Origin: a virus
IMG/VR virus record: IMGVR_UViG_3300046718_000378
Coordinates: 1 to 60,122 of that record
Direction: 5' to 3' (one strand)
Length of the DNA: 60,122 bases
This document shows, one piece after another, positions 1 to 60,122 of the stretch (the stretch's first letter is position 1; each line of letters opens with the position of its first letter). A program made the position numbers and the translations under genes. The notes under the pieces are model-generated. The model worked only from the letters and a program-made list of their open reading frames with translations. It did no database searches and was not told the DNA's origin.

Positions 1-127
1 GCGCCCAGAACTGTAGGGGCATGCCACGGCCGCCTGGCGGGTTCAGGAAGACCGAGAACGGCCCGCCGCCGTACGGCTCCCACGAGCACACCAGCCCGTT
101 CTCTGACGCCGTCAGGAAGCGCCTGGC
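1..127. repeat. Left copy of 127-bp terminal direct repeat
   Basis: Identical to 59996-60122. An exact 127-bp end overlap is the usual signature of a circular assembly graph (k-mer 127), so this is most likely redundancy of a circular or circularly permuted genome and not a biological terminal repeat. The methyltransferase gene reads straight through it. Confidence 0.95.
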
Positions 128-262
128 GCCCACGGCGGCGTTGGCCTCGGCATCGGACGCGGGGTCAAGGTCGATGCCGCCCAGCACGCGGCGGGCGCGG
201 TCTATGATGTCGGACGGGGTGTACCAGAGGTGGCTGGCGGCGGAGTGTTGCGCGTTGGGCAT
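1..262 (-). CDS. Phage DNA N-6-adenine methyltransferase, N-terminal part (continues at 59995)
   Basis: This is the N-terminal part of a gene that crosses the ends of the linear window and finishes at 59721 (537 nt, 178 aa in total). The joined protein shows the phage Dam family (PF05869) pattern: an N-terminal WYTPSDIIDRAR segment, then GGIDLDPAS, and an NPPGG catalytic motif of the DPPY/NPPY class in the part near 60,050. It should transfer a methyl group from SAM to adenine N6, protecting phage DNA from restriction or marking it. The start ATG at 262 has no Shine-Dalgarno but a -10 hexamer 5 nt upstream. It lies between the major capsid gene and a virion gene, an unusual place for a methyltransferase. 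Confidence 0.9.
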   Translation of the reverse strand, partial: MPNAQHSAASHLWYTPSDIIDRARRVLGGIDLDPASDAEANAAVGARRFLTASENGLVCSWEPYGGGPFSVFLNPPGGRGMPLQFWA

Positions 263-267
263 GCCCT

Positions 268-297
268 AGCGTGGCAGACGTAAGAACGCCCCGGCAA
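268..297 (-). promoter_or_regulatory. Leaderless promoter of the methyltransferase
   Basis: TTGCCG, 18-bp spacer, CACGCT, then 5 nt to the ATG at 262. Same geometry as the other leaderless promoters in this genome. Confidence 0.6.
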
Positions 298-347
298 CTG
301 TTTCCAGCGGCCAGGGCGGCTAAGCTACCAGTTCAGTTAGCTAGTCT

Positions 348-1343
348 TCAAACGAGCTGGTTATCGCTATACTCGACGGCGAGCGGGTAGTAGATATTGA
401 CGCCAGCGTAGCGCGCCTGGCAAACGTGCGTGAACACACCCTTCGCGTACTCGACCGGGAGAATCTCGAACTCGATGCCCGTCTCGAACTCGAGGACTTC
501 AGGCGACTTGTGGTAGCAGATGACTCGGCCGGCCGTGCCGTCTGCGCTCGCCGTGGACAGCTTGGTCCACGAGTCGATGCTGATGCCGGGGTTCTGCATC
601 TGGAAGCTCGAAAGCACCGTGGCGTTCGACGCGTTGTCGACGCTGAGGAGCTTCGTGGCCAGGATGCGCCACGCTGCCGTCGACACCAAGATGGCGTTCG
701 GCGAGAAGATTTCCTTCGTGTCCACGAGCATCGAGGTCACGAGGTAGTTGAGGTCTTCGAGGATTTCCTCGCCCGAAGCCGTTGCCCACGCGCCGTTCGG
801 CAGCGTCTTCAACGTTGCGTTCGGGTGGTTGGCAAGGCCGTAGGTGCCGATGTCCGGGACGCCGAAGGCCGTGATGCCGTCGCGTGCCAGCTCGATGCCG
901 CGGCGCGCTGCGTCGCCAAGGCGCGTGGTGAGCGCTACGCCCGCCGCCGAAGCCTTACGAAGGTCTTCGATGGAGTAGTAGTAGCCGTCCTTGACGTTGA
1001 AGTAGCGGACGATCTTCTCGACCGCGCTCGCCGACACCATGGGGATGTCGGTTGCGTAGTTGTGCATCACCTTGGCGACCACGAACGCGTCCCAGATGCG
1101 GACGACAAGCGTCTCACTGGTCGCGCCGCCTTCGTTCGACTCGGGAACGAAGCTGCGCGCCTTGAGCGCCTCGTACTTCTTTTCATAGATGCGTGACTTC
1201 ACAGTCTCGAGCTGGCGCGCGAAGATCATCGTCTCGGCAGCATCGTTCGATGCCGCACGGATTTCAGGCTCCACTGCGTCGAGGTTGGGAATGGTCTCGA
1301 GAACGTGCGCGTCAAACTCAAGCACTGCAGGGCGGTTCTTCAT
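348..1343 (-). CDS. Major capsid protein (DUF2184 family)
   Basis: About 331 aa with the features of the DUF2184 major capsid family: an N-terminal arm (FDAHVLETIPNLD), a long alpha-helical spine region and a C-terminal half ending in IYYPLAVEYSDNQLV. It forms the icosahedral shell. The ATG at 1343 is chosen because an AAGGTG Shine-Dalgarno sits 9 nt upstream; a GTG at 1355 is in frame but has none. A late-type TGCTAGGCT lies 57 nt upstream, giving a real 5' leader, as expected for the most abundant virion protein. Upstream is the cement gene, with an HNH gene inserted between the two. Confidence 0.88.
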   Translation of the reverse strand: MKNRPAVLEFDAHVLETIPNLDAVEPEIRAASNDAAETMIFARQLETVKSRIYEKKYEALKARSFVPESNEGGATSETLVVRIWDAFVVAKVMHNYATDIPMVSASAVEKIVRYFNVKDGYYYSIEDLRKASAAGVALTTRLGDAARRGIELARDGITAFGVPDIGTYGLANHPNATLKTLPNGAWATASGEEILEDLNYLVTSMLVDTKEIFSPNAILVSTAAWRILATKLLSVDNASNATVLSSFQMQNPGISIDSWTKLSTASADGTAGRVICYHKSPEVLEFETGIEFEILPVEYAKGVFTHVCQARYAGVNIYYPLAVEYSDNQLV

Positions 1344-1392
1344 GGCCGGGATCACCTTTTGTTGGCCCGGCGCTGCGACGCGACCGGTTGTA

Positions 1393-1983
1393 CTACAGGT
1401 AGCCTAGCACTTGATTTCCCTTGCGTGCGTTGCAGGGCCGGCAGAGCGGCTGGAGGTTCCAGATGTTCGAGCAACCTCCTCGAGAAACCGGAATAACGTG
1501 GTCCACTTCCAGCGCACCGTCGCATGCGCAGTGGCGGCAGCGGTGTCCGTAACACTCGAGCACGGCGTCCCACTCTGCAGGCGTGAACGAGCCGCCTGCG
1601 CCCGTCATGCGGGTGCGATACCGGAGGAGCGCCGCGCGCCTTGCCGGCCTGTTGCTGCGGTCCCAGCGGCGGTTGCGGGCGTTGTGCCGGGTCCGGTTCC
1701 GCCGCAACCACCGGGACATGTGCTCAGCCTGCCGTTCTGGGTGAGCGGCCACCCACGCCTTCACCCTGGCCTTGGTCTTCGCCAGCGTGTGTTTGTGGGC
1801 GTCGCAGACGCCCGTGGTGCTCGTGGTGTAGACGCTGTTCTGGCAGCCCGCCACAGAGCACGTGGACATCGGCGCCAGCTGCCCTGCATTGCGGGCCTTG
1901 TCGTAGTGCTTGCGGCACCACTGGCGGGAGTACCAGGCCGACTGACAGCCTTCAACGCAACATGCCCTGGCAACTTTCGTCAC
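1393..1983 (-). CDS. HNH homing endonuclease with paired N-terminal zinc knuckles
   Basis: 196 aa. Two CxxxC-type zinc modules near the N-terminus (CCVEGCQSAWYSRQWCRKH and CSVAGCQNSVYTT...CDAH) precede a basic linker and a C-terminal HNH domain (VDHVIPVSRGG, NLQPLCRPCNARKG). It should cut DNA site-specifically and promote its own spread. It sits between cement and capsid genes, a typical homing position. The GTG start at 1983 is set by a promoter whose -10 ends 6 nt before it. The core HNH closely resembles the HNH gene at 53188, so the two are probably paralogues. Confidence 0.85.
   Translation of the reverse strand: MTKVARACCVEGCQSAWYSRQWCRKHYDKARNAGQLAPMSTCSVAGCQNSVYTTSTTGVCDAHKHTLAKTKARVKAWVAAHPERQAEHMSRWLRRNRTRHNARNRRWDRSNRPARRAALLRYRTRMTGAGGSFTPAEWDAVLECYGHRCRHCACDGALEVDHVIPVSRGGCSNIWNLQPLCRPCNARKGNQVLGYL
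1401..1409 (-). promoter_or_regulatory. Late extended -10 promoter of the capsid gene
   Basis: TGCTAGGCT on the minus strand, 57 nt before the capsid ATG and inside the 3' end of the HNH gene. No -35. It shares the TGNTANNNT pattern seen before 13 other late genes. Confidence 0.5.
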
Positions 1984-1992
1984 CAGGGCATG
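1961..1992 (-). other. Stem-loop around the HNH start codon
   Basis: Perfect 10-bp inverted repeat (CATGCCCTGG / CCAGGGCATG) with a 12-nt loop. The GTG start lies at one edge of the stem, so folding or a bound protein could limit expression of the nuclease. Confidence 0.5.
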
Positions 1993-2019
1993 TTGGCATC
2001 TCGACGCCCTAGGCGTCAA
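1990..2019 (-). promoter_or_regulatory. Leaderless promoter of HNH gene
   Basis: TTGACG, 18-bp spacer, CAACAT, then 6 nt to the GTG at 1983. Confidence 0.65.
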
Positions 2020-2024: not shown

Positions 2025-2942
2025 TCAACCGAGGAGGTTGATGTACGCGGGGGCAAGGCCCGCCGCCGACTTGCGGGTGAAGCGGCCGGGGACGAGCACG
2101 CACGATGCGGTGTCCGCGTCGTTACGGAACTGGCCGAGGACGCTGCCGCCTGCGCCCGCTGCAACGCGAACGTAGATCGGGTCCTGGTCGTTGACAGCTT
2201 CCTCGGTGATGACCCAGATGCCGCCCTTGGTGATGACGTTGAAGGGCTCGCCGTCAACGTAGTTGCCCTCGGCGCCCGTGGCGGTGAAGCCGGGGTAGCC
2301 GTAGAGGTTCGACGCGAACACGCCGGTCTTGATGGGCTCGCGCACCACGATTCCGAGGAGGTCCGACACGGTGAGCGAGGCGAGGGCCGGCACGCCAACG
2401 GTGAAGCTGCCCGCCACGCCGGCCTGGGCCGACATCACGACGGCCGAAACCGAGCTGAAGTACGTGGTGGTCGTAAGCGTCTGCCCGCCGCCGTCTGCCA
2501 TGGCAAGCGTCTCTGTCGTGGGCTGGTTGGTCAGGGCGTTGATGCCCGTGATTGCCACGGTGCCGACGTCGAAGTCGGCGTGCGTGGAGGTCGTGACGGT
2601 CACGAGGCGGGCAGGCTGCATGGCGCCGGCACCGATGAGGCCGTTCAAGCTCGCGCCTGACAGCGTGAGGATGGACGCGCTGGACGCGTGGGTCGTCACG
2701 ATGGCATCGACGTCCACTGCCGCGACGGGGGTCGGGCTCTGGAACGCTTGGCCGCACGACTCAACGAACGAGCCGCCCGATTGTCCGTGGACGCCGGGGA
2801 CCTTGAAGGTGCCCATGCCGGCGAGCTGCAGGCCGCGCGCGATGCGGGTCGTGATGCGGCGATCGTCATAGGCTTCCGAGAAGGAGCCCGCCGTTGCGAT
2901 GTCGTTCCGGGCCGTAAAAGTTGACTGGATGATGGTAGCCAT
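2025..2942 (-). CDS. Capsid cement/decoration protein (gp24/DUF2190-like)
   Basis: 305 aa. The ends resemble the phage structural cement protein family: an N-terminal FTARNDIATAGSFSEAYDDR segment and a C-terminal GRFTRKSAAGLAPAYINL segment. In between lies a long Thr/Val/Ala-rich stretch, probably an inserted beta-rich surface domain. It would stabilise the shell. The start at 2942 follows GGAGAAGAGA; the leader is about 69 nt from a TGCTAGGAT element. It lies directly upstream of the capsid gene apart from an HNH insertion. Confidence 0.65.
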   Translation of the reverse strand: MATIIQSTFTARNDIATAGSFSEAYDDRRITTRIARGLQLAGMGTFKVPGVHGQSGGSFVESCGQAFQSPTPVAAVDVDAIVTTHASSASILTLSGASLNGLIGAGAMQPARLVTVTTSTHADFDVGTVAITGINALTNQPTTETLAMADGGGQTLTTTTYFSSVSAVVMSAQAGVAGSFTVGVPALASLTVSDLLGIVVREPIKTGVFASNLYGYPGFTATGAEGNYVDGEPFNVITKGGIWVITEEAVNDQDPIYVRVAAGAGGSVLGQFRNDADTASCVLVPGRFTRKSAAGLAPAYINLLG

Positions 2943-3011
2943 TGTGGTCTCTTCTCCGGCGCCGTGCGCCGCTAGGGTGTCCGCTTCGCGCACCTGCCGC
3001 GCTTACAGACA

Positions 3012-3020
3012 ATCCTAGCA
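3012..3020 (-). promoter_or_regulatory. Late extended -10 promoter of the cement gene
   Basis: TGCTAGGAT, 69 nt before the ATG. It overlaps the TAG stop of the upstream HNH gene. Confidence 0.5.
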
Positions 3021-3566: not shown

Positions 3567-3573
3567 GCCAGCC

Positions 3574-3603
3574 AGCATCTCACGACACTGGCTGCCGCGT
3601 CAA
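3574..3603 (-). promoter_or_regulatory. Leaderless promoter of HNH gene
   Basis: TTGACG, 18-bp spacer, GATGCT, then 7 nt to the ATG at 3566. Confidence 0.65.
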
Positions 3604-3606
3604 CGT

Positions 3607-4719: not shown

Positions 4720-4728
4720 AGCGTAGCA
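4720..4728 (-). promoter_or_regulatory. Late extended -10 promoter, leaderless
   Basis: TGCTACGCT with 6 nt to the ATG at 4713; no TTG-type -35. Confidence 0.45.
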
Positions 4729-5828: not shown

Positions 5829-5837
5829 ATGGTAGCA
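5829..5837 (-). promoter_or_regulatory. Late extended -10 promoter, leaderless
   Basis: TGCTACCAT with 7 nt to the ATG at 5821. Confidence 0.4.
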
Positions 5838-8566: not shown

Positions 8567-9065
8567 CCTGGATGATATCACCATCCCGCCTGGCGGCGCG
8601 CAGGTAGGCCGCTGCGCCTTCCAGGTGCTCTGGGCTGTCTCCAAAGAAGCCGAGCCCTGAGTTGCAAGTTCGATGCAGCAGCCCTCGGATCTTCCCGGTC
8701 TTGTGGCAGTGGTCTACCACGCCAGAATAGGGAGTCCTGCCCTTTGTTGACAGTATGGCGCCCTTGCAGACAGCGCAGACGCCTCCCTGGCGCGTGAGGA
8801 GCTCTGTCAAGAAGTCCTCGGACGAGATGCCTCTACGCCGCAGGTTGTATCTGCGGTCCAGTACCCCCTTGTCTTGGTTGGCTTTGCGGTAGGCCCTGCG
8901 CTTGGCGAGCCACTCAGGGTCACCCTTGATTTTGGCGAACCACCGCTTCTTTGCCAGCTCCTCCTTTTCCGGGAATCTCTCCCGGTAGTCCTTCTTGTAG
9001 CAGGCGTGGCAGAAGCCACGCCGGCCCTTGTTTTCGGGCTTCTGACACCCTTCACGCTTGCACAT
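8553..9065 (-). CDS. Endonuclease VII-like HNH nuclease
   Basis: 170 aa. N-terminal zinc knuckle (CKREGCQKPENKGRRGFCHACY) and a recombination-endonuclease-VII type core: CAVCKGA, VDHCHKTGKIRGLLHRTCN, LGFFGDSPEHLEGAAAYL. It probably resolves or nicks branched DNA, or acts as a homing nuclease. It is inserted between terL and the portal gene, overlapping both ends of the junction. The start is fixed by a leaderless promoter 5 nt upstream. Confidence 0.83.
   Translation of the reverse strand: MCKREGCQKPENKGRRGFCHACYKKDYRERFPEKEELAKKRWFAKIKGDPEWLAKRRAYRKANQDKGVLDRRYNLRRRGISSEDFLTELLTRQGGVCAVCKGAILSTKGRTPYSGVVDHCHKTGKIRGLLHRTCNSGLGFFGDSPEHLEGAAAYLRAARRDGDIIQDELL
8572..8580 (-). promoter_or_regulatory. 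Late extended -10 promoter of the portal gene, leaderless
   Basis: TGATATCAT with 5 nt to the ATG at 8566; lies within the 3' end of the EndoVII-like gene. Confidence 0.45.
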
Positions 9066-9070
9066 ACCAA

Positions 9071-9100
9071 ATGCTCGCACAGCATCGCTGCACAAGTCAA
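9071..9100 (-). promoter_or_regulatory. Leaderless promoter of EndoVII-like gene
   Basis: TTGACT, 18-bp spacer, GAGCAT, then 5 nt to the ATG at 9065. The block GTGCGAGCATTTGG spanning the -10 is identical to that before the gene at 57030. Confidence 0.65.
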
Positions 9101-13307: not shown

Positions 13308-13316
13308 GGCCAGACC

Positions 13317-13346
13317 ACCGTATCTCGGCGGGGACACTTTACGCAA
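13317..13346 (-). promoter_or_regulatory. Near-leaderless promoter of the AP2 gene
   Basis: TTGCGT, 18-bp spacer, TACGGT, then 9 nt to the ATG at 13307. The spacer contains one copy of the GGGACACT repeat, so a protein bound there would block RNA polymerase. Confidence 0.55.
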
Positions 13347-14400: not shown

Positions 14401-14430
14401 TTGTGCGGGGGTGCCCGCCCATGCGACCAT
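14401..14430 (+). promoter_or_regulatory. Leaderless promoter of serine recombinase
   Basis: TTGTGC, 18-bp spacer, GACCAT, then 7 nt to the ATG at 14438. Confidence 0.55.
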
Positions 14431-14437
14431 AGGGGCT

Positions 14438-16411: not shown

Positions 16412-16444
16412 GGGTAGGCTCCTATGGTGCGGTGATGGTGTAGG

Positions 16445-20326: not shown

Positions 20327-20355
20327 TTGCGCGTGAGTGGGAGCAGCTGCATGAT
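20327..20355 (+). promoter_or_regulatory. Leaderless promoter of HNH-AP2 gene
   Basis: TTGCGC, 17-bp spacer, CATGAT, then 6 nt to the ATG at 20362. Confidence 0.6.
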
Positions 20356-20361
20356 GTGAGC

Positions 20362-23204: not shown

Positions 23205-23350
23205 CTGGCAGACATTGTAAGTGCGCCGGCAGCCTAAGCTTTCCGGGATCTGGCAGACATGGTTGATGTCAAGCTGGCAGACATCCCGGCCGCAGAATCT
23301 GGCAGACCCTGGCAGACATTCAACTTCGTGCTTGACGTCCTGGCAGACTT
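23205..23350. repeat. Six-copy CTGGCAGACAT direct repeat array
   Basis: Copies start at 23205, 23250, 23274, 23299, 23309 and 23340, all in one orientation; ten or more of eleven bases are conserved. Spacings are 45, 24, 25, 10 and 31 bp. It lies between divergent operons, and the last copy is inside the spacer of the 23367 promoter, so it looks like an operator or iteron array. Confidence 0.85.
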
Positions 23351-23360
23351 GGCCGAGCAT
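23332..23360 (+). promoter_or_regulatory. Leaderless promoter of the early operon
   Basis: TTGACG, 17-bp spacer that contains repeat copy 6, GAGCAT, then 6 nt to the GTG at 23367. Confidence 0.55.
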
Positions 23361-23366
23361 TGCTGA

Positions 23367-23573: not shown

Positions 23574-24706
23574 ACAAGCAACTAGACATCGAAGCCGTCA
23601 TATCCCGCCTCCCTTTCCGCCAGTACGTAGGCCCTCGCGGCACGCTCACGTGCAAGCACAACGCGCTGCAGGCCAAGGTGGACGAGCTATACCCGCCCGC
23701 GTATCTGTCCAGCCGTCAGTCGGCGTGGTGTGAGTACGCTGCCGAAGAAGGGCCGGTTTACCGCATGTCGGGTGGTCGTGGCGAGGCCGCATACACACCC
23801 GACCAGTGCCGCGCGATCCTCAATCGCGTTCGCGTCAACGCTGGCGGCGTCCCACACGTGCACGAGGTCAACCAGGCCGCCAAGGAACGCCGGCTAGCGC
23901 TCAAGATGTTGCTTCCGCCCCTGCCGCCTAAGGCAGCCCAGCCCGTAGCCGCCCAGGAGACTGTGCCCGAGGCAGCCGGCACTGCCATCGCGCTCTCGGT
24001 GGCAGACATCCAGACGGTGGCCCAAGTCGAGGTGCTCGACCACGTAACGCTCGCTCGAAACCTCGGGTACGGGGACAAGGAGAACGCGAAGAACTTCCGC
24101 GAGTTCGTCAAGGGCACGTTGGCAAAAGACCCAGGCTTTCAGCATCTTGGAACCCTCGCGGAGGGCTCCGCGACCGTTCCCGGAGGCAACGGCGCCGTCA
24201 ACACCCGGGCCGTCTACTACTTCACGGAGGAGCAAGCGCTCTACGCCACGGCCAAGTCTCACAAGCCCGAGGCAGCCCGGTTGACCCTCGCCATGGTCAA
24301 GACGTTCGCAGCGTACCGCCAAGGCAAGCTCCAGCCCACGGAGCCTAGCGCTGGCCTCGTGCTCGGGCGGATGTCTGAGGTTGTCGAGCTGCTGGCCAAG
24401 CGCCTGGTCGCTCACGATGACCGCTTCCAAGAACTGGTCAGCGTCCAGGAGGTCGAGCGCGTTCGGGTGACCGACCTGGCAGCACGTATCTCCAGGCTGG
24501 AGGACGGGCGCCTGGCGGAGGCCACGCCAGACAACTCCAACGGCAAGCGCGTGCCATCCAAGTACGAAGCACAGTGCAAGCACCCTCGACTTCGCGGGCC
24601 GGCTAGCCCGAAGCAGGTGCAGTACGTGACGTCGCTAGGGTATGTGGTTCCTGGGTTGACCAAGGCGCAGGCGCACTGGTTGATCAGCAACCACTACGCT
24701 GCTTGA
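23571..24706 (+). CDS. Antirepressor-like DNA-binding protein
   Basis: 378 aa. The middle (about 150-255) resembles phage antirepressor/Rha-type domains: VTLARNLGYGDKENAKNFRE, then AVYYFTEEQALYATAKSHKP and LAMVKTFAAYRQGK. A coiled-coil stretch follows, and the C-terminus ends SPKQVQYVTSLGYVVPGLTK. Leader GCAGGAGTACCCAA gives the ATG at 23571. As the second gene after the repeat array it may regulate early transcription. Confidence 0.6.
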
Positions 24707-24732
24707 CCTGCAGCCCTGAAACCTGCCACGCT
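24703..24732 (+). promoter_or_regulatory. Near-leaderless promoter of primase-helicase
   Basis: TTGACC, 18-bp spacer, CACGCT, GGGTGACG, then ATG at 24741 (8 nt). Closest in sequence to the promoter of the 38274 gene. Confidence 0.6.
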
Positions 24733-24740
24733 GGGTGACG

Positions 24741-27356
24741 ATGATGCTGCGATTCAAGGGTCTTCGGTTCGAGGCGCGCGGGCAATACGGCGTCAAGATT
24801 GATGCCACGTTCGACGTGCCGTGGACCTACGCAGGCGTTTCTAGCGCCTTCCCTGACGAAGGCGTAACCGATAAGGCGTCACAGCGTCTGTGGGCCGCTG
24901 CGGAGTACCGCCCAGGCGCCACGCGCGGCAACCAGGGCGTGGTCCAGGTCTACGCAGCCGTGCTCGATGCGGACTGTATGGACCCTGGGTCCTTGGACAG
25001 CCTGCTGGCGCTCCTGTACAAACAAGGGCGTGCCTTTGCTGCCTACACAAGTTGGTCGCACGGCTCCCCGGAAAAGCACCACAAGGATTCTGGCAAAACC
25101 GGACCGTTCGACTGCTTTCGTTTAGTGCTCCCGTACAGCCGGCCTCTCACACCCCCAGAGCATCAATGTGTTGTGCCGTCCCTTTTCGGCTTCGAGTTAC
25201 CGGCGCTTGAGCCGCGCTACAACGCGGAGGTGCTGGGCAGGTGGATGGAGCGCGCAAACGGCACATTTGTTGCCGCCAAGCCGCGCGGCTGGGACCCTGC
25301 GTCAGCACGCCCCGCGCAAAGCTACTTCACACCCGCACCGCACTCGTCTCTTGACGTAGGCGAAGGATACCCGCTCGACGTGGCCGCGATACTCGCGCGC
25401 CCGCAGACCGCGAGGCCGAATCTGATACGCGTGCACCGCGACCGCCAGGCTCCTACGCAAGCGGCTGTCGGAGCTCTCGCGGATATCGGGAAGGCTCTCG
25501 CACAACAGGGCTTCCACCTGGGCGACGAGTCCCCGGACGGCTGGCGGCGCACGGCGTGCCCCGTGTGCGCCCCGGATGCGGTGCAGAAGTCCCCCTCATT
25601 CCGCATCCGCGCCAACGGGGAGGCCGTGGACGGCCACTGCTTTGCGGGCTGCAAACGCTTGGACATCATGCGCGCGCTCGGGCTCCAAGAAGACGGCCGC
25701 TTCGACGCACCGTCCGAGCTCCGCACGCTCTTCGACTTGCAGCTGGAGTCGCAGACCATAGGCGACCCAGTGCCTGTGGACAAAGCTGTGGATACCCTGG
25801 TGGCAGATATCCGCAACGCGGTGGCTTCGCAGACCCCCACGGTCATCCAATACCCGGCCGGCACCGGCAAGAGCCATGCCAGCGCCATCGTGCTTGCCGA
25901 GCGGGTGCGCGCGGGGCGCAAGATCGTCTACGCAACTCAAGAACACGTGGTCGCGCACGAGACGCGCAGTAAGCTGGAGCCGGACGTCCTTGCTCGATCG
26001 GTGCACATCCACTCGCCGCTCGTTCAGGTAGGCGACGGCCCCGTCTGCCAGCGCAAGGCCGAGGTGTCGGCCCAGGTGTTCGAGCTCGGCGTAGGGCTGC
26101 TGTCGTCGATCTGCCCCAAGTGCCCGTACGTGCAGACCTGCGAAGCCCACGCAGCAGCCAAGCAGCGGGCGGCAGCGCTGCCGGACGCAGACCTGGTGTT
26201 CGTCTCGCACGCCGGCATACAGCAGCTGATAGGCACGGACGCGCTGGGCATGGCGAAGGGGTCGGACTACGAACTCATCGTCGATGAGATGACCGGCGTG
26301 TTCAACCCGGTGCAGGTCCACCTACCCGACCTCCGGGAGCTCGCTGCCGAAGGCCCCGGCCTGCGCTCGGTTCCGAACCGACTCGGGCGCGCGCTGCGCT
26401 CGCTGGCGTCGTCGTACTTGGCGTGCGAGCCGCCCCAGGAGGTCCGCTTCGGGCCGGGCGGGTCTGCGATGGGCAACGCGTTGGAGATCGTGCTTGAGGC
26501 CGGCGCCGTGCAGCTGTCGCCCAACGCCCGGCCCGCACCCGACGAGCGCGCCCAGCTCAAGTCGGCGGCAGCGCTAGTCAAGCTCGCGGTCCACCAGTCA
26601 GGCGGTGGGCAAGTCTACGGTCTAGACGAACCACAGCGTGAGGGGCTATCGGCCATGCTGCCAGATCCGTGCCACCAGGCGCTGCTCGCGCGCAAGGGCA
26701 CGCTGCTGTCGGCCACGCCGCTCATGCCGGCGCTGCCGTCGTTCGCCTTGAGGGAAGTCCAGGTCACTGATGGTGCCCGCGTGCGGCGCGTCATGCTGCT
26801 GGCCGGCCGCCGTGGGTCGTGGGCGCTCACCCGGATGTACCGCGACGGCAGCGGCAAGTACGTCCAGCGGGCACCCGAGCCAGGCGAGCCAGCCGGCGTA
26901 CCGTGGCCCGTGGTCGCTGCAGCCGTCAAGCGCGCCCGCGACGAGGCCCAGCGGTACGAATGCAAGCGCGTGCTCTTCGTGACGTTCAAAGGCGTTGCAG
27001 ACGCCCTGCGCGCGTCGCCGGTGTACTCCAAGTACGACTGGTTAGACGTCGCCCACTACGGCGCGCTTCGGGGGAAGAACGACTGGATGGAAGGCCGCCC
27101 ACAAGAGTGCTCGGTGATCTACTGCCTGGGCACGCCGCGGTCGGACATCCTGCCCACGCTGGCGCAGCTGGGTCTCACGGGAGAGGCAGCAGACCAGGCG
27201 TGGCGCGCGTACGCTGCCGGCGAGCTCACGCAGGCCGAGGGCCGGCTTCGTCTGCCACGACGCACGAAGCCGTGCTCGGTGCTGGTCGAGGGCGACGTGG
27301 CCCCTTCGTCCTGGACGAGTTCGACCGTAGACGAAGTGATCGAGCTTGACGTCTAA
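24741..27356 (+). CDS. Primase-helicase (AEP-like primase, zinc domain, SF2 helicase)
   Basis: 871 aa. The N-terminal 200 aa look like an archaeo-eukaryotic-type primase: an acidic AAVLDADCMDP motif (about 72-82), YTSWSHGSPEKHHKDSG (about 102-118) and FRLVLPYSRPLTPP (about 126-139). A zinc-ribbon-like element follows (ACPVCAP...GHCFAGC, about 272-304). The helicase has Walker A YPAGTGKSHAS (about 371-381), a second cysteine cluster (CPKCPYVQTCEAH), Walker B YELIVDEMTG and LLSATPLMP. It should prime and unwind DNA at the phage fork. A GTG at 24735 is in frame; the ATG at 24741 suits the promoter. Confidence 0.75.
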   Translation: MMLRFKGLRFEARGQYGVKIDATFDVPWTYAGVSSAFPDEGVTDKASQRLWAAAEYRPGATRGNQGVVQVYAAVLDADCMDPGSLDSLLALLYKQGRAFAAYTSWSHGSPEKHHKDSGKTGPFDCFRLVLPYSRPLTPPEHQCVVPSLFGFELPALEPRYNAEVLGRWMERANGTFVAAKPRGWDPASARPAQSYFTPAPHSSLDVGEGYPLDVAAILARPQTARPNLIRVHRDRQAPTQAAVGALADIGKALAQQGFHLGDESPDGWRRTACPVCAPDAVQKSPSFRIRANGEAVDGHCFAGCKRLDIMRALGLQEDGRFDAPSELRTLFDLQLESQTIGDPVPVDKAVDTLVADIRNAVASQTPTVIQYPAGTGKSHASAIVLAERVRAGRKIVYATQEHVVAHETRSKLEPDVLARSVHIHSPLVQVGDGPVCQRKAEVSAQVFELGVGLLSSICPKCPYVQTCEAHAAAKQRAAALPDADLVFVSHAGIQQLIGTDALGMAKGSDYELIVDEMTGVFNPVQVHLPDLRELAAEGPGLRSVPNRLGRALRSLASSYLACEPPQEVRFGPGGSAMGNALEIVLEAGAVQLSPNARPAPDERAQLKSAAALVKLAVHQSGGGQVYGLDEPQREGLSAMLPDPCHQALLARKGTLLSATPLMPALPSFALREVQVTDGARVRRVMLLAGRRGSWALTRMYRDGSGKYVQRAPEPGEPAGVPWPVVAAAVKRARDEAQRYECKRVLFVTFKGVADALRASPVYSKYDWLDVAHYGALRGKNDWMEGRPQECSVIYCLGTPRSDILPTLAQLGLTGEAADQAWRAYAAGELTQAEGRLRLPRRTKPCSVLVEGDVAPSSWTSSTVDEVIELDV

Positions 27357-27375
27357 CACTTCGCCAGGCGAGGAT
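27346..27375 (+). promoter_or_regulatory. Leaderless promoter
   Basis: TTGACG, 18-bp spacer, GAGGAT, then 5 nt to the ATG at 27381. Begins inside the 3' end of the primase-helicase gene. Confidence 0.6.
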
Positions 27376-27380
27376 TACGT

Positions 27381-35233: not shown

Positions 35234-35670
35234 CAATCCGCCTACGCCAGACCGAAGACACCGACACCATCATAGAGCTCAACGCTGAAATCTTCCCGTT
35301 CGACGGGGGCATCTCGGTGGAAGAGCTCGACGAGTCCACGTGGTGGGTGGCCGAGGTCGACGGCGAGCTGGCGGGGTTCGGCGGGGTGCAGCTGCTGGAC
35401 GGCAAGGCGTACATGGCGCGTGCGGGAGTGCGCAAGCAGTTCCGTGGCGCCGGCATCCAGCAGCGGCTTATCCGGGTGCGTGCGGCGTACGCCAAGCGCG
35501 CCGGCAAGGCACGCATCTACACGTACGTCTGGGTTGGCAACCTGGCGTCCACCCGGTCGCTGCTTCGGTGCGGGTTCGTACCGTACCACTGGGAGCGTTC
35601 CGAGACGTCACCAGGTCACGAACAAACTTTCGTCTACTACGAGCGGAAGCTGTTGACGAAGGCTGCTTAA
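35230..35670 (+). CDS. GNAT N-acetyltransferase
   Basis: 146 aa, full GNAT domain: WVAEVDGELAGFGGVQ (beta2-beta3), the acetyl-CoA loop ARAGVRKQFRGAGIQQRLIR, then YVWVGNLASTRSLLRCGFVP. Acetylates an amine of an unknown substrate, perhaps a host protein. GTG start coupled to the previous gene. Confidence 0.85.
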   Translation: MTIRLRQTEDTDTIIELNAEIFPFDGGISVEELDESTWWVAEVDGELAGFGGVQLLDGKAYMARAGVRKQFRGAGIQQRLIRVRAAYAKRAGKARIYTYVWVGNLASTRSLLRCGFVPYHWERSETSPGHEQTFVYYERKLLTKAA

Positions 35671-35682
35671 ACCACCCATCAT
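35653..35682 (+). promoter_or_regulatory. Leaderless promoter
   Basis: TTGACG, 18-bp spacer, CATCAT, GGGTAC, ATG at 35689 (6 nt). Confidence 0.65.
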
Positions 35683-35688
35683 GGGTAC

Positions 35689-38237: not shown

Positions 38238-38267
38238 TTGCGCCCGTAGCCCGTCGTGACGCACGAT
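38238..38267 (+). promoter_or_regulatory. Leaderless promoter
   Basis: TTGCGC, 18-bp spacer, CACGAT, GGGTGG, ATG at 38274 (6 nt). Confidence 0.65.
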
Positions 38268-38273
38268 GGGTGG

Positions 38274-41577: not shown

Positions 41578-41607
41578 TTGCGTCGTGGAGCCCTTGGCGC
41601 GCATGCT
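41578..41607 (+). promoter_or_regulatory. Leaderless promoter
   Basis: TTGCGT, 18-bp spacer, CATGCT, TAGTAC, ATG at 41614 (6 nt). Confidence 0.55.
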
Positions 41608-41634
41608 TAGTACATGCACATCGCCAAGGGCTCC
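41587..41634 (+). other. 13-bp inverted repeat across promoter and start codon
   Basis: GGAGCCCTTGGCG (41587-41599) and CGCCAAGGGCTCC (41622-41634) are exact reverse complements; inside them GCATG/CATGC pair again. It covers the -10 and the ATG of the 41614 gene, so it is more likely a protein site or cruciform than a leader hairpin. Confidence 0.8.
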
Positions 41635-43966: not shown

Positions 43967-43975
43967 AGGGTAGCA
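43967..43975 (-). promoter_or_regulatory. Late extended -10 promoter, leaderless
   Basis: TGCTACCCT with 6 nt to the ATG at 43960. Confidence 0.5.
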
Positions 43976-46825: not shown

Positions 46826-46834
46826 AGCATAGCA
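46826..46834 (-). promoter_or_regulatory. Late extended -10 promoter of baseplate J, leaderless
   Basis: TGCTATGCT with 6 nt to the ATG at 46819. Confidence 0.5.
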
Positions 46835-47235: not shown

Positions 47236-47832
47236 TCAGGACTCCAGCTTCAGAACGGTGGACCCGCTGGTAGCGAGCGGGTTGGCGTAGGCGGCGAACT
47301 GCGTCTTGAGCGCGGCAAGCCCAGGCTCTTGCGGGCCAGGGGTGCAGGTCGCGAGCGCCGACAGGAACTCGTCTACCTTGGACGCCAGGGCGGCGGCGTC
47401 GCCAGGTGCCGGGAAAGGGCTCTGGGCGGGCACCAGGCCGGGGACAGCCACGGCACTGGACCAGCTATGCACCCGCGCGTCCTCGGGCTCTGCAGGCTGC
47501 CCTGTGCGCCGCCAGCCGCTGATGTCCCGGTCCATGCAGACCAGCAGCACAGAATCGCCGGGGGCGAGCGTGCCGAGCACCTGGAAGCCTCGACCCACGG
47601 GCCAGCAAACGGGCACGTCCTGTAGGGCAGGGTGCTCCTCCACGTCGTCCAGGTCCGCGTCGTTGGCCGAAGGCACCAGCCTGTGTACGCCCATGCGCAC
47701 GGTGCAGGTGCTGCGGGCGGCGTCGTACGACACCACCGTACCCGGCGTGGCCACGCCAGTGCGGGCTAGCCGGACGTCGAGGGCCATCCGAATGTTCTGC
47801 CCCGGCAGCGGGGTCGTGTTTGCGATTGACAC
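47236..47832 (-). CDS. Baseplate spike / Gp138-type protein
   Basis: 198 aa. N-terminal Gp138-like OB domain (PGTVVSYDAARSTCTVRMGV, DVPVCWPVGRGFQVLGTL, PGDSVLLVCMDRDISGW), followed by a Pro/Ala-rich region and a C-terminal helix. Forms the central spike. GTG start 6 nt after TAGGCT. Confidence 0.75.
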   Translation of the reverse strand: MSIANTTPLPGQNIRMALDVRLARTGVATPGTVVSYDAARSTCTVRMGVHRLVPSANDADLDDVEEHPALQDVPVCWPVGRGFQVLGTLAPGDSVLLVCMDRDISGWRRTGQPAEPEDARVHSWSSAVAVPGLVPAQSPFPAPGDAAALASKVDEFLSALATCTPGPQEPGLAALKTQFAAYANPLATSGSTVLKLES

Positions 47833-47855
47833 CCCGTAAGCCTAGCAGGTAGCCT
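47826..47855 (+). promoter_or_regulatory. Leaderless promoter of the 69-aa plus-strand gene
   Basis: TTGACA, 18-bp spacer, TAGCCT, then 7 nt to the ATG at 47863. Confidence 0.65.
47839..47847 (-). promoter_or_regulatory. Late extended -10 promoter of the spike gene, leaderless
   Basis: TGCTAGGCT with 6 nt to the GTG at 47832. It lies inside the opposing plus-strand promoter, so the two should exclude each other. Confidence 0.5.
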
Positions 47856-47862
47856 TTGACCT

Positions 47863-49289: not shown

Positions 49290-49298
49290 AGGCTAGCA
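49290..49298 (-). promoter_or_regulatory. Late extended -10 promoter, leaderless
   Basis: TGCTAGCCT with 5 nt to the ATG at 49284. Confidence 0.5.
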
Positions 49299-51820: not shown

Positions 51821-51829
51821 AGCCTAGCA
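51821..51829 (-). promoter_or_regulatory. Late extended -10 promoter of tape measure, leaderless
   Basis: TGCTAGGCT with 5 nt to the ATG at 51815. Confidence 0.5.
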
Positions 51830-52485: not shown

Positions 52486-53165
52486 AGCCCAAGGATGCGC
52501 CCTGGCACTGTGGATGTCCAGAACCTTTTGTCTGCGAAGTAGGCAGTGTGTGACAGCCCCCACCAACCGGTGAGCAGGCCGCCTACGGACACCTCGACGT
52601 CCCGGACCTTCGGCAGCCACGCGCGCACGGGCCAGCCCAGCATGTCATCCTCGTCGAACGCGTTTACCCACTTGCCGGGGGCGTCCACCTGGGGCGGCAC
52701 CACGAAGCTGGCTTCGGCGCCCTGGTAGAACAGCTCCAGGTTGCAGCCGAAGGTGACCAGCTTGTCCACCTTGACGCCGGTGCGGGAGCGCAGGTAGTCG
52801 CATGCGATTAGCGCGCCTAACGAATGCGCGAAGATGACCACGTTGTCCGCGCGCAGCTGGCGGATTTCGTAGTCCATCACGTAGTGAATGGCGTCGCGGT
52901 GGTGGCCGTACGACAAGGCGTCTGCGAGCGTCCTGATGACCAGCCCCTGCGCCGGACGGCCCGCAGACCCACCGCGCTTGACGGCAGCCGCCATGGCCTG
53001 CTGGGGGGCGTCCAGGATGGGTGCCCAGTGGACGCTGCGACCGTAGAGCGTGCAGCCGCGGGCCGACAGCGCGCCGGCCAACCAGCGCTGGGCGCGGTCG
53101 GCGAAGTCGGCGGTCTGTTGGCCTACGCCGTGAATAAACAGCGCCGCTATGCTTGACGTGGGCAT
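52482..53165 (-). CDS. Alpha/beta hydrolase (lipase/esterase-like)
   Basis: 227 aa. Begins MPTSSIAALFIHGVGQQTAD (oxyanion HGVG motif), with nucleophile elbow VIFAHSLGALIACDYL (Ser about 126) and later Asp in NAFDEDDMLGWP and a likely His in WGLSHTAYF. A hydrolase of ester or lipid bonds, placed between tube and chaperone genes where none is expected. It may be a virion enzyme acting on the envelope, or a moron. ATG 7 nt after TGCTAGACT. Confidence 0.75.
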   Translation of the reverse strand: MPTSSIAALFIHGVGQQTADFADRAQRWLAGALSARGCTLYGRSVHWAPILDAPQQAMAAAVKRGGSAGRPAQGLVIRTLADALSYGHHRDAIHYVMDYEIRQLRADNVVIFAHSLGALIACDYLRSRTGVKVDKLVTFGCNLELFYQGAEASFVVPPQVDAPGKWVNAFDEDDMLGWPVRAWLPKVRDVEVSVGGLLTGWWGLSHTAYFADKRFWTSTVPGRILGL

Positions 53166-53182
53166 GTAGGCCAGTCTAGCAT
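53153..53182 (+). promoter_or_regulatory. Leaderless promoter of plus-strand HNH gene
   Basis: TTGACG, 18-bp spacer, TAGCAT, then 5 nt to the ATG at 53188. Confidence 0.65.
53173..53181 (-). promoter_or_regulatory. Late extended -10 promoter of the hydrolase gene, leaderless
   Basis: TGCTAGACT with 7 nt to the ATG at 53165. It overlaps the -10 of the divergent HNH promoter: one ATGCTAGACT-type segment serves both strands. Confidence 0.5.
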
Positions 53183-53187
53183 CGGGG

Positions 53188-54115: not shown

Positions 54116-54124
54116 AAGTTAGCA
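54116..54124 (-). promoter_or_regulatory. Late extended -10 promoter of the tube gene
   Basis: TGCTAACTT, 50 nt before the ATG at 54065; overlaps the stop of the 64-aa gene. Confidence 0.5.
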
Positions 54125-54313
54125 CGGGCGCCAGCAGCCGAACGCCGGTGGCGACTGGCGCACGATCTGGATGGCCGTGCAGCCTTCGTTGGACCGTCTC
54201 ACGAAGGTCCACTGGGCGTCACGGAAGTCCATGAACGGGCCGTCCTTGGCCGTGTTGCCTGCCGTGTCGGTGTACTGGACCCACATGGGAACGCGCATGC
54301 CACAGCTTGACAT
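54119..54313 (-). CDS. 64-aa protein between sheath and tube
   Basis: Begins MSSCGMRVPMWVQYTDTAGN, then FMDFRDAQWTFVRRSNEGCT and a C-terminus FGCWRPC. Protein-like, beta-rich. ATG at 54313 after ACAGGGCGCC. Perhaps a small tail protein; unrecognised. Confidence 0.5.
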   Translation of the reverse strand: MSSCGMRVPMWVQYTDTAGNTAKDGPFMDFRDAQWTFVRRSNEGCTAIQIVRQSPPAFGCWRPC

Positions 54314-54336
54314 GGCGCCCTGTTCCACGAGACCAT
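54307..54336 (+). promoter_or_regulatory. Leaderless promoter of HTH gene
   Basis: TTGACA, 18-bp spacer, GACCAT, then 5 nt to the ATG at 54342. Confidence 0.65.
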
Positions 54337-54341
54337 GGGGC

Positions 54342-56066: not shown

Positions 56067-56073
56067 GGCAAAA

Positions 56074-56104
56074 CCTCTGGAGGTAGTTGTTCTCCCTCCA
56101 GGTT
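56074..56104 (-). other. Hairpin in the sheath leader
   Basis: CTGGAGG/CCTCCAG arms (56077-56083, 56095-56101), extended by AACC/GGTT, then TTTTG on the minus strand. It sits in the leader of the sheath mRNA and may be an attenuator or an mRNA-stabilising stem. Confidence 0.5.
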
Positions 56105-56108
56105 AGCA
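56100..56108 (-). promoter_or_regulatory. Late extended -10 promoter of the sheath gene
   Basis: TGCTAACCT, 34 nt before the ATG; the transcript would start inside the hairpin. Confidence 0.5.
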
Positions 56109-56742: not shown

Positions 56743-56763
56743 CCTCAAGGATAGCGCGCCTGG

Positions 56764-57030: not shown

Positions 57031-57036
57031 GCCCAA

Positions 57037-57066
57037 ATGCTCGCACGTCACGACGCCGAAGCACAA
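57037..57066 (-). promoter_or_regulatory. Leaderless promoter
   Basis: TTGTGC, 18-bp spacer, GAGCAT, then 6 nt to the ATG at 57030. Confidence 0.6.
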
Positions 57067-58070: not shown

Positions 58071-58606
58071 GCCGCCGCCCTGGCAGGCGGGGCCGACAAG
58101 TACACCTCGTAAGGCTCGATGCGAAGCGTGGCCCGCTGGCGCTTCTCGTAGTGGCCGAGCCCTACGTTGCAGTGGTAGCAAAGCACGCCCCGAGCAAGCC
58201 CCGTTGTGTGGTCGTGGTCTGCGCAGGCGTTTGACCGCCCGTCTTTGAAAGCTCTAAATGCCTGCCGGCAAATGGCGCACACGTTGCCCTGCGCTATCAG
58301 CAGCTCCGCAACCTGCCCCTTGCGGAAGCCGCACTCCTTGCGCTGGCGTTCGCGGGCGGCGGGCTGGTTGCGCTTGTCCCGAGCACGCCTCTTGACGGGG
58401 TCACCTGGGCGGTGGGGCCTAGCTGCGTCGTACGCGCGCAGAGCGTCCAGGTTCTCCTGGCGGTATTTGGCATATCCGGCAGCGCATGCCTCGCGAAAGC
58501 CGGGGTCTGTGGCGTAGCGCTCCCGGCGCATGGTGTTAGAGCACGGAACGCAACGCCCTTTGCGCTCGCCGTCGTTCACGCAGCCTTCAGTGAGGCACTT
58601 CTTCAT
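58067..58606 (-). CDS. Endonuclease VII-like HNH nuclease
   Basis: 179 aa. N-terminal knuckle (CLTEGCVNDGERKGRCVPC), Arg-rich middle, EndoVII core CAICRQAFRAFKDGRSNACA, DHDHTTGLARGVLCYHCNVG. Inserted between connector and neck genes, overlapping both by a few bases. Paralogue of the 8553 nuclease. Confidence 0.85.
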   Translation of the reverse strand: MKKCLTEGCVNDGERKGRCVPCSNTMRRERYATDPGFREACAAGYAKYRQENLDALRAYDAARPHRPGDPVKRRARDKRNQPAARERQRKECGFRKGQVAELLIAQGNVCAICRQAFRAFKDGRSNACADHDHTTGLARGVLCYHCNVGLGHYEKRQRATLRIEPYEVYLSAPPARAAA

Positions 58607-58953
58607 ACCAGGGAAGGTATCAGATGCCCCAGCACGAACGCAACCCCAACGAAGCCGAACACCCGGCGACCCATCGTAGCGGCGCGCTGGCGCATGCGGA
58701 GCCGGTACTCGTACTGCAGCCCCGCGCCCTCGCCGAGCCGCATCTTGCGCGCGAAGGGCGATTGCGACAGCAGCACGGCCGCCTGCAGCATGACCGCCGT
58801 CGTACACGCTGCGTCCGTGGGGTACACGTCGGCGTTGGTCGACTCGGCCGCCTCGTCCAAGGCAGCCTGCACCAGGGCCGTGTACTCCGCGGGAATCTCA
58901 CCAAACTCGGGGTATCGGTCGGTGAACGCAACGACGGTAGGAGCAACGGCCAT
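58603..58953 (-). CDS. Head-tail connector (DUF4054)
   Basis: 116 aa. DUF4054 pattern: VVAFTDRYPEFGEIPAEYTA, LVQAALDEAAESTNADVYPT, MLQAAVLLSQSPFARKMRLG and a C-terminal YRLRMRQRA. Joins the portal to the tail. ATG 5 nt after TAGACT. Confidence 0.78.
   Translation of the reverse strand: MAVAPTVVAFTDRYPEFGEIPAEYTALVQAALDEAAESTNADVYPTDAACTTAVMLQAAVLLSQSPFARKMRLGEGAGLQYEYRLRMRQRAATMGRRVFGFVGVAFVLGHLIPSLV
58614..58643 (-). promoter_or_regulatory. Leaderless promoter of EndoVII-like gene
   Basis: TTGCGT, 18-bp spacer, TACCTT, then 7 nt to the ATG at 58606. Confidence 0.55.
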
Positions 58954-58958
58954 GCTCC

Positions 58959-58967
58959 AGTCTATCA
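58959..58967 (-). promoter_or_regulatory. Late extended -10 promoter of the connector gene, leaderless
   Basis: TGATAGACT with 5 nt to the ATG at 58953; contains the TGA stop of the zinc-ribbon gene. Confidence 0.45.
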
Positions 58968-59135
58968 CGCAGCTGCGGGCGTCTTTCCTTCTACCAGGTC
59001 GGCCAGGTTCTCGAAGAACTTGCCGTGGCAGTAGGTGCAGTCGTCAGGCGGGTTGACGCCAGCGAAGCACGTGCCGCAGTCCTCACACACCCAGTGGTGC
59101 TCCACCGGGGTGGTGTCTACCTTCGCCTTAGCCAC
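58965..59135 (-). CDS. 56-aa zinc-ribbon (rubredoxin-like) protein
   Basis: WVCEDCGTCFAGVNPPDDCT followed by YCHGKF: two CxxC knuckles at rubredoxin/zinc-ribbon spacing. GTG start 3 nt after the upstream virion gene, in the same late operon. It probably binds one zinc ion; role unknown. Confidence 0.65.
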   Translation of the reverse strand: MAKAKVDTTPVEHHWVCEDCGTCFAGVNPPDDCTYCHGKFFENLADLVEGKTPAAA

Positions 59136-59138
59136 GGG

Positions 59139-59654
59139 TCACTTCAGTCCGGCGAGGCGCGTAGAGATGTTGATCTTGAGCGTCGAGTCCTTGGTGGACT
59201 TGAGCCAGCGCTCCAGGGCAGCGCGCTCGGTGGTGACCGCGATGATGGCGTTCGCTGCATCGGCGCTCGCCGGCAGGGTCATGGGGGCGGGCGGGCCGTC
59301 TTCGCGACCGACTTGCGAGTCCTCGAACACCGTGATTTGCGGGCCGACCTTGGTGCCTTGGACCGTGATGATCGTCACGGGCGTCTGGAGCTGCGACAGG
59401 ATCTCCAGGCCGGGGTAGCGGTACAGCGGGGCGCCCTTCTTGTCCGCGCGCGGGCGGCCCATCTTGTCGCACATGACGCGCTTCTGGGCACGCAGGGCGT
59501 CCATGTAGACGTCGGGCACGCTGTTGAGCCCCGGCTGCAGGCGCACGCCGTTCGGGAAGTCGGTGAAGTCCCCGTCGTCGCCGGTCTCGATGCCGAGGAT
59601 GGGCGGGAGGTCGATGAAACGAGCGGTGTTGTTTTCGATCTTCTTGGTCGGCAT
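59139..59654 (-). CDS. Virion-associated protein of unknown function
   Basis: 171 aa. FIDLPPILGIETGDDGDFTD near the start and a charged C-terminal region (ERAALERWLKSTKDSTLKIN). GGAGTAGCGC precedes the ATG. Between the methyltransferase and connector genes, so probably a capsid or neck component. Confidence 0.6.
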   Translation of the reverse strand: MPTKKIENNTARFIDLPPILGIETGDDGDFTDFPNGVRLQPGLNSVPDVYMDALRAQKRVMCDKMGRPRADKKGAPLYRYPGLEILSQLQTPVTIITVQGTKVGPQITVFEDSQVGREDGPPAPMTLPASADAANAIIAVTTERAALERWLKSTKDSTLKINISTRLAGLK

Positions 59655-59720
59655 GCGCTACTCCTGCGACGAACACCTTAGTTGTGTCCTGACGCCGCAC
59701 CATCCGCCACAGGAAACGTA

Positions 59721-60122
59721 CTAGAGCTTGGTCTTTCCTACGTCAGCGAACACACAACGGAACTCCTGGGAGCGGTCGTAGGTGCCGTCCACGTAGACTA
59801 TTGCGTTGGCGTGCGTGGGTGACGTGGCCTTGCCGCCAGCGCCGGGTACGAACCGCAGTCGGCGGTCTGGTACACACACCGCGAAGTCCAGCATGGACAG
59901 GTGGTCGCGGCCCTGGGTGAGCTGCAGCTGTTCGATGGAGTAGGCCACTACCACGGCGTGCTTGAGCAACCCGCGCTTGCGGTAGTCCATCAGCCGCGCC
60001 CAGAACTGTAGGGGCATGCCACGGCCGCCTGGCGGGTTCAGGAAGACCGAGAACGGCCCGCCGCCGTACGGCTCCCACGAGCACACCAGCCCGTTCTCTG
60101 ACGCCGTCAGGAAGCGCCTGGC
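59721..60122 (-). CDS. Phage DNA N-6-adenine methyltransferase, C-terminal part (starts at 262)
   Basis: The rest of the gene described at 1-262; read the joined circle for the full 178-aa protein. This part holds FSVFLNPPGGRG with the catalytic NPPG motif, VVVAYSIEQLQLTQGRDHLS and FAVCVPDRRLRFVPG. The right end of the window repeats bases 1-127. Confidence 0.9.
   Translation of the reverse strand, partial: ARRFLTASENGLVCSWEPYGGGPFSVFLNPPGGRGMPLQFWARLMDYRKRGLLKHAVVVAYSIEQLQLTQGRDHLSMLDFAVCVPDRRLRFVPGAGGKATSPTHANAIVYVDGTYDRSQEFRCVFADVGKTKL
59996..60122. repeat. Right copy of 127-bp terminal direct repeat
   Basis: Exact copy of 1-127; shows that the assembly closes into a circle of 59,995 bp. 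Confidence 0.95.

What the first reader, a model, noticed from the sequence alone, without database searches (positions are those of the whole stretch)
1..60122. Genome-wide class of leaderless promoters with a fixed 18-bp spacer
Nineteen genes have a TTG-type -35, a spacer of exactly 18 bp (17 in two), a NANNNT -10 and a start codon only 5-9 nt further on, with no Shine-Dalgarno. Start codons: 262, 1983, 3566, 6875, 9065, 13307, 14438, 20362, 23367, 24741, 27381, 35689, 38274, 41614, 47863, 53188, 54342, 57030, 58606. Every HNH, EndoVII and AP2 gene is in the list, and all five plus-strand genes outside the replication operon except 19779. RNA would start at or within a few nt of the first codon. 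The inserted nucleases thus seem to carry a portable promoter-start unit that frees them from the operons they invade. The geometry is seen directly; leaderless translation follows from it as inference.
Basis: partly seen in the sequence, partly recalled or inferred. Interest (0 to 1): 0.88.

Follow-up and report, generated by a model that had tools for sequence, protein, structure and literature searches.

The report
Phage genes starting without mRNA leaders
About a third of the genes in this bacterial virus appear to be read from promoters placed so close to the first codon that the message has no untranslated front end; mobile DNA-cutting genes carry this arrangement with them, and the most abundant particle proteins are the exception that keeps a leader.

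Summary
All 19 sites exist as described (17 with an 18-bp spacer, 2 with 17). Among 84 starts called blind from codon usage, 12 carry TTG-18-NANNNT-(5..9)-start, against 5 of 3634 other ATG/GTG (p=4e-17) and at most 2 in 500 shuffles. Three of the 19 starts (13307, 23367, 54342) are insecure.

A second class, extended -10 TGCTANNNT without a TTG -35, abuts late genes, also 5-7 nt before the start. In four relatives (orthologs 26-59% identical) the start-adjacent -10 is conserved gene by gene; seven virion genes have it in all five genomes. The same TGCTANNNT stands 18-74 nt upstream, usually with an SD-like stretch, before major capsid, sheath, tube and a probable decoration protein.

All six HNH/EndoVII genes use the class. 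One, with its promoter, lies in a 777-bp tract identical in a relative that otherwise differs by about 8%; another is absent there. Streptomyces-phage HNH genes are enriched for start-adjacent promoters (15/27 v 75/524).

Leaderless translation is inferred; no RNA was mapped. Leaderless promoters are known; the genome-wide use, the leader split by protein abundance, and nucleases moving with the unit look new.

The parts
263..297 (-). class 1 promoter (TTGCCG-18-CACGCT, 5 nt to ATG 262; Dam-like methylase fragment)
1984..2019 (-). class 1 promoter (TTGACG-18-CAACAT, 6 nt to GTG 1983; HNH gene 1393-1983)
   Evidence: gene and promoter absent in relative L001
3567..3603 (-). class 1 promoter (TTGACG-18-GATGCT, 7 nt to ATG 3566; HNH gene 3015-3566)
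   Evidence: gene and promoter lie in identical tract 2851-3627 shared with L001
6876..6911 (-). class 1 promoter (TTGTTT-18-CATCAT, 6 nt to ATG 6875)
9066..9100 (-). class 1 promoter (TTGACT-18-GAGCAT, 5 nt to ATG 9065; EndoVII gene 8553-9065)
13308..13346 (-). class 1-like site before ATG 13307 (AP2-only ORF, insecure)
14401..14437 (+). class 1 promoter before ATG 14438 (serine resolvase)
20327..20361 (+). class 1 promoter, 17-bp spacer, before ATG 20362 (HNH_3 gene)
23332..23366 (+). class 1-like site, 17-bp spacer, before GTG 23367 (insecure start)
24703..24740 (+). class 1 promoter (TTGACC-18-CACGCT) before ATG 24741 (871-aa gene of the replication region)
   Evidence: ortholog in G002 (38116, 52% aa identity) has TTGACG-18-CAAGCT, 6 nt to its called TTG start
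27346..27380 (+). class 1 promoter before ATG 27381
35653..35688 (+). class 1 promoter before ATG 35689
38238..38273 (+). class 1 promoter before ATG 38274
41578..41613 (+). class 1 promoter before ATG 41614
47826..47862 (+). class 1 promoter before ATG 47863, interleaved with the class 2 promoter of divergent gene 47832(-)
   Evidence: start codons 30 bp apart
53153..53187 (+). class 1 promoter before ATG 53188 (HNH gene), interleaved with the class 2 promoter of divergent gene 53165(-)
   Evidence: start codons 22 bp apart
54307..54341 (+). class 1 site before ATG 54342 (insecure start)
57031..57066 (-). class 1 promoter before ATG 57030
   Evidence: start-adjacent -10 CATGCT in the G001 ortholog
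58607..58643 (-). class 1 promoter (TTGCGT-18-TACCTT) before ATG 58606 (EndoVII gene 58067-58606)
   Evidence: start-adjacent -10 in the G001 ortholog
4720..4728 (-). class 2 extended -10 TGCTACGCT, 6 nt before ATG 4713 (head maturation protease)
   Evidence: start-adjacent in all five genomes
5829..5837 (-). class 2 extended -10 TGCTACCAT, 7 nt before ATG 5821
8572..8580 (-). class 2 extended -10 TGATATCAT, 5 nt before ATG 8566 (portal)
   Evidence: start-adjacent -10 in all five genomes
43967..43975 (-). class 2 extended -10 TGCTACCCT, 6 nt before ATG 43960
46826..46834 (-). class 2 extended -10 TGCTATGCT, 6 nt before ATG 46819 (baseplate J-like)
   Evidence: start-adjacent in all five genomes
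47839..47847 (-). class 2 extended -10 TGCTAGGCT, 6 nt before GTG 47832
49290..49298 (-). class 2 extended -10 TGCTAGCCT, 5 nt before ATG 49284
   Evidence: not seen in the orthologs
51821..51829 (-). class 2 extended -10 TGCTAGGCT, 5 nt before ATG 51815 (tape measure)
   Evidence: start-adjacent in all five genomes
53173..53181 (-). class 2 extended -10 TGCTAGACT, 7 nt before ATG 53165
56748..56753 (-). class 2 -10 TATCCT, 5 nt before ATG 56742 (no TG in the window; TGCTANNNT in orthologs)
1401..1409 (-). class 2 promoter TGCTAGGCT of the major capsid gene (348-1355), with a leader; lies inside the last codons of HNH gene 1393-1983
3012..3020 (-). class 2 promoter before 2993 (virion protein, probable decoration), leadered
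54116..54124 (-). class 2 promoter TGCTAACTT, 50 nt before ATG 54065 (tail tube candidate), leadered
56100..56108 (-). class 2 promoter TGCTAACCT, 33 nt before GTG 56066 (tail sheath), leadered, short 5' hairpin

Best explanation
These are sigma-70-type promoters whose -10 hexamer ends 5-9 (mostly 5-7) nt before the start codon, so transcription would begin at or within a nucleotide or two of it and the mRNA would be leaderless. There are two kinds: class 1 (TTGNNN, 18-bp spacer, weak -10 SANSAT) for nucleases, small ORFs and the replication-region gene 24741; class 2 (extended -10 TGCTANNNT, no TTG -35) for late virion genes. The phage uses leaderless starts by default for proteins needed in few copies. 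For capsid, sheath, tube and a probable decoration protein the same class 2 promoter is moved 18-74 nt upstream, leaving room for a leader and an SD-like site. Free-standing HNH/EndoVII genes carry a class 1 promoter fused to their first codon and move with it, so each insertion is self-expressing. Shown: geometry, statistics, conservation, co-transfer of promoter and gene. Inferred: host RNA polymerase uses them, TSS at the start codon, translation by 70S/leaderless initiation, lower yield than SD-led mRNA.
For: Geometry against chance. -10 peak at 5-7 nt in blind starts of the window and five related records. Ortholog conservation at low protein identity: 91 pairs both, 187 neither, 67 discordant, odds ratio 15 (pairs not independent); seven virion genes start-adjacent in all five genomes. 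Starts with the -10 less often have an SD (9 of 33 v 30 of 50, p=0.004) and are mostly ATG (30 of 33 v 27 of 50). Divergent genes with start codons 22 and 30 bp apart share interleaved promoters, leaving almost no room for leaders. Leadered copies of TGCTANNNT before capsid, sheath and tube mark the motif as promoter, not translation signal. No sigma-70 region 2 gene found in the window or four relatives. Mobility: identical tract 2851-3627 over HNH and promoter; empty site for HNH 1393-1983 in L001.
Against: No RNA data exist, so no TSS is mapped. The host is unknown, so it cannot be shown that it translates leaderless mRNA well. Class 1 -10 boxes are weak (T at -12 in only 4 of 19) and might need an activator. 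The exact 18-bp spacing is enriched only in the window and G001. G004's two nuclease genes lack the feature. Gene 49284 does not keep it in relatives. Translation could also come from read-through of longer upstream transcripts.
Confidence: 0.82

Rival explanations
1. The motif is a start-associated translational or regulatory signal (as 'start-associated sequences' of some actinophages, from memory) read at RNA or DNA level by a phage factor, not a promoter.
For: It abuts start codons and is phage-wide.
Against: It matches -35/-10 geometry with fixed spacing; class 2 copies before capsid, sheath and tube stand far from the start; overlapping divergent pairs share it.
Confidence: 0.08
2. Promoters are real, but the main mRNAs are leadered: transcripts come from upstream operon promoters, and the start-adjacent promoters only add a minor leaderless form.
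For: Many genes lie in same-strand operons and some starts have an SD.
Against: SD is depleted at these starts; positions are conserved; several genes face away from their neighbours.
Confidence: 0.25
3. Two temporal classes switched by a phage factor that blocks sigma region 4, as gp39 of Thermus phage P23-45 does: -35-dependent class 1 early, extended -10 class 2 late. (This is an addition to the best explanation rather than an exclusive rival.)
For: Class 2 serves virion genes and lacks TTG -35; T at -12 is 4 of 19 in class 1 and 10 of 13 in class 2, the latter partly by selection; gp39 precedent in PMC7403470.
Against: TG and TTG are not mutually exclusive; some class 1 genes lie among late genes; no gp39 homolog was sought or identified.
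Confidence: 0.35
4. Chance or artefact of picking start codons.
For: A few starts (13307, 23367, 54342) were chosen against the coding signal.
Against: 12 of 84 blind starts against 5 of 3634 other codons, p=4e-17.
Confidence: 0.01

Closest known systems
Bacterial leaderless genes with TANNNT about 10-12 bp before the start (Zheng et al. 2011, PMC3160421)
   Same: Same -10 placement and inference of missing 5'-UTR.
   Different: Those are cellular genes; here a phage group in unknown hosts, with a fixed 18-bp -35 class and a TG-extended class.
Cluster O mycobacteriophages (Corndog group) promoters PL1, PR2, PL2 (PMC4351075)
   Different: Two or three promoters there; about 30 here, split by gene type, with nuclease cassettes.
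Thermus phage P23-45 middle/late promoters and gp39 (PMC7403470; leaderless mRNAs from memory)
   Same: Extended -10 class for middle and late genes, -35/-10 class otherwise.
   Different: No gp39 homolog was identified; both classes here are start-adjacent.
Free-standing homing endonucleases with their own promoters (T4 Seg/Mob type; from memory)
   Same: Mobile nuclease gene carries its own expression signals.
   Different: Here the promoter abuts the start codon and would give a leaderless message.

Membership tests
Leaderless gene/promoter | -10 box ending about 5-8 nt before the start codon, above chance | tested here: met
Leaderless gene/promoter | SD lacking or depleted at these starts | tested here: met
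   (18 of 19 class 1; 9 of 33 against 30 of 50)
Leaderless gene/promoter | TSS mapped at the start codon | not testable with these tools
   no RNA data
Sigma-70-type -35/-10 promoter | TTGACA-like -35 and TATAAT-like -10 at 16-18 bp | tested here: met
   TTG, A at -11 and T at -7 in 19/19 (required by the pattern); beyond the pattern, -35 position 4 is A in 10/19, spacer 18 in 17/19; -12T in only 4/19
Extended -10 promoter | TGn before TANNNT with a dispensable -35 | tested here: met
   9 TGCTANNCT against 3.75 expected, all upstream of starts on one strand; TG in 11 of 13 class 2
gp39-type promoter switching | phage factor displacing sigma region 4 | not tested
   no gp39 homology search was run
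Homing endonuclease mobility | endonuclease gene present or absent at a fixed site between relatives | tested here: met
   HNH 1393-1983 absent in L001
Homing endonuclease mobility | co-conversion tract around the gene | tested here: met
   777-bp identical tract 2851-3627 in a 92% background
Homing endonuclease mobility | cleavage of the empty site | not testable with these tools
   needs biochemistry

The most novel reading that the evidence does not exclude
A phage lineage sets virion protein dosage by leader presence: one promoter motif is used everywhere, leaderless for low-copy proteins and leadered with an SD-like site for capsid, sheath, tube and decoration, while free-standing HNH/EndoVII genes move as ready-made leaderless expression cassettes, a habit also seen in Streptomyces phages.
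Probability: 0.5. Interest if true: 0.78.

Novelty: new variant of a known kind. Interest (0 to 1): 0.66.

Why it matters
Leaderless mRNAs in phages are known from single cases or small sets. Here sequence alone predicts about 30 in one genome and the same genes in relatives, which makes a test of leaderless translation in infection straightforward. The split between leaderless low-copy and leadered high-copy virion genes under one promoter motif offers a simple rule for protein dosage. The nuclease cassettes show how a mobile gene can be expressed wherever it lands. It also warns that start-codon annotation guided by SD sites can misplace starts (annotated TTG of Streptomyces phage EGole gene 223 against an ATG 30 nt later with a perfect -10).

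Tried and rejected
Megablast to named phages: no match. Single-protein scans of viral contigs gave only L001 or nothing; an alignment of the T5 A1-like protein reached the relatives. Host identification failed: genome hits of that protein are only 31-40% identical and mostly proteobacterial; resolvase and nuclease hits are mixed. A strict trade-off between TTG -35 and TGn was rejected. 'All HNH genes in phages carry such promoters' was rejected: Kenmech, 16-3, RHph_X2_25, Poludnitsa and GMA6 score 0. Codon-based calling missed many nuclease genes in named phages, so the comparison was redone by scanning all in-frame starts. A single-subunit RNA polymerase search rang nowhere, controls included, so it is uninformative.

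Full report
What was checked. All 19 sites were read out and match the description exactly: TTGNNN, 18 bp (17 at 20362 and 23367), NANNNT, 5-9 nt, start codon. A codon-usage gene caller that knows nothing of promoters gave 85 starts. Twelve carry the TTG-18 geometry, against 5 of 3634 other ATG/GTG codons on both strands (p=4e-17) and 0.15 on average in shuffled upstream sequences (maximum 2 in 500). Other spacers give 0-3. NANNNT boxes peak at 5, 6 and 7 nt (9, 18, 7 starts, against about 3 at other distances). Three claimed starts are insecure (13307, 23367, 54342); 3566 and 24741 have near alternatives.

A second class. Ten further genes have TANNNT 5-7 nt before the start, nearly always as TGCTANNNT. 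TGCTANNCT occurs 9 times, all on the minus strand and all upstream of starts, against 3.75 expected and never 9 in 100 shuffles. T at -12 is in 4 of 19 class 1 and 10 of 13 class 2 boxes (partly by selection of class 2). TG and TTG are not mutually exclusive.

Conservation. An alignment of the T5 A1-like protein found related phages in IMG/VR. Four were read in full (G001-G004), and a fifth record (G006) was scanned. All show the -10 peak next to blind-called starts. Between reciprocal best hits (mean identity 38-45%) the start-adjacent box is shared far more than expected: 91 both, 187 neither, 67 discordant, odds ratio 15, pairs not independent. Protease, portal, 43960, baseplate J, tape measure, 56742 and 58968 have it in all five genomes; for 58968, and for several others in some genomes, this uses alternative starts within 4 log units of the called one.

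The leader rule. The same TGCTANNNT also stands 18-74 nt upstream of four virion genes: major capsid (phrog_264), tail sheath (phrog_205), tail tube candidate (phrog_280, KPP10_Orf10) and 2993 (virion protein next to the capsid gene, probably decoration), in nearly every genome; the G004 capsid gene is the exception without a clear match. A purine-rich SD-like stretch is visible by eye in most of these leaders. The script placed the G002 sheath at 5 nt through an alternative start, but the sequence shows an ATG 35 nt on with TTTGAGGGG before it. The hand-tallied comparison of abundant and other genes gave p=1e-11 by gene (18 of 19 leadered against 2 of 38) and 5e-4 by family. The idea arose from these data, so it needs independent testing; protein abundance is assumed from general knowledge of tailed phages.

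Mobile nucleases. The window has six HNH/EndoVII genes over Pfam cut-offs, all class 1. In relative L001 (92% identical), HNH 1393-1983 and its promoter are absent; L001 has a GC-rich inverted repeat followed by Ts and the capsid promoter there. In the window the last codons of that HNH gene contain the capsid promoter TGCTAGGCT. HNH 3015-3566 is 552/552 identical in L001, inside a 777-bp identical tract that includes its promoter, while neighbouring genes are 84-96% identical. That pattern fits recent homing with co-conversion of the promoter-start unit. In named Streptomyces phages, 15 of 27 HNH genes have a start-adjacent promoter score of 3 or more against 75 of 524 other genes (p=2e-6; starts were scanned from the upstream stop to the domain for HNH and to a fixed depth for others, so chances differ somewhat, and the four phages are partly related). 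In the relatives it is 5 of 8 against 36 of 167 (p=0.018), and in other named phages 1 of 22 against 13 of 483.

Mechanism. Spacing between -10 and start codon puts the expected TSS on or beside the first base of the codon (established sigma-70 geometry). No sigma-70 region 2 gene was found in the window or the four relatives, so host RNA polymerase is the likely reader. Divergent start codons 22 and 30 bp apart with interleaved promoters leave almost no room for leaders. A gp39-like switch between classes is possible but untested.

Known and new. Leaderless bacterial genes with this signature are described (PMC3160421), and three such promoters were predicted in cluster O mycobacteriophages (PMC4351075). 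The literature searches, limited to open-licence papers, found no report of the leader split, nor of nucleases moving as leaderless cassettes; absence there is weak evidence.

Noticed in passing
window 36053-38234: DNA polymerase matches one PHROG over two consecutive ORFs (positions 670-989 and 996-1235), as if the gene were split.
   Followed up: no
window 1-127 and 59996-60122: Identical 127-bp direct terminal repeat; with L001 bridging the ends, the record looks like a complete circularly closed or permuted genome.
   Followed up: partly
window 1393-1410: The end of HNH gene 1393-1983 (GTGCTAGGCTACCTGTAG) contains the capsid promoter, so the inserted gene's C-terminal codons double as a -10 element.
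   Followed up: partly
window 16169-19982: Small genes share a strong repeated SD context (CACCAAAGGAGCCC) unlike the rest of the genome; probably an early leadered operon.
   Followed up: no
L112 (EGole) 408-438: HNH gene 223 is annotated from a TTG; an ATG 30 nt later has TGCTATAAT ending 6 nt upstream, suggesting a misannotated start.
   Followed up: partly
G002, for example 23687-23716 and 35169-35198: A palindrome around CTACGATCGTAG recurs near promoter-like sites in relative G002; possible operator.
   Followed up: no
window 56066-56099: Sheath leader folds into a short hairpin right at the 5' end in the window, and also in G001.
   Followed up: partly
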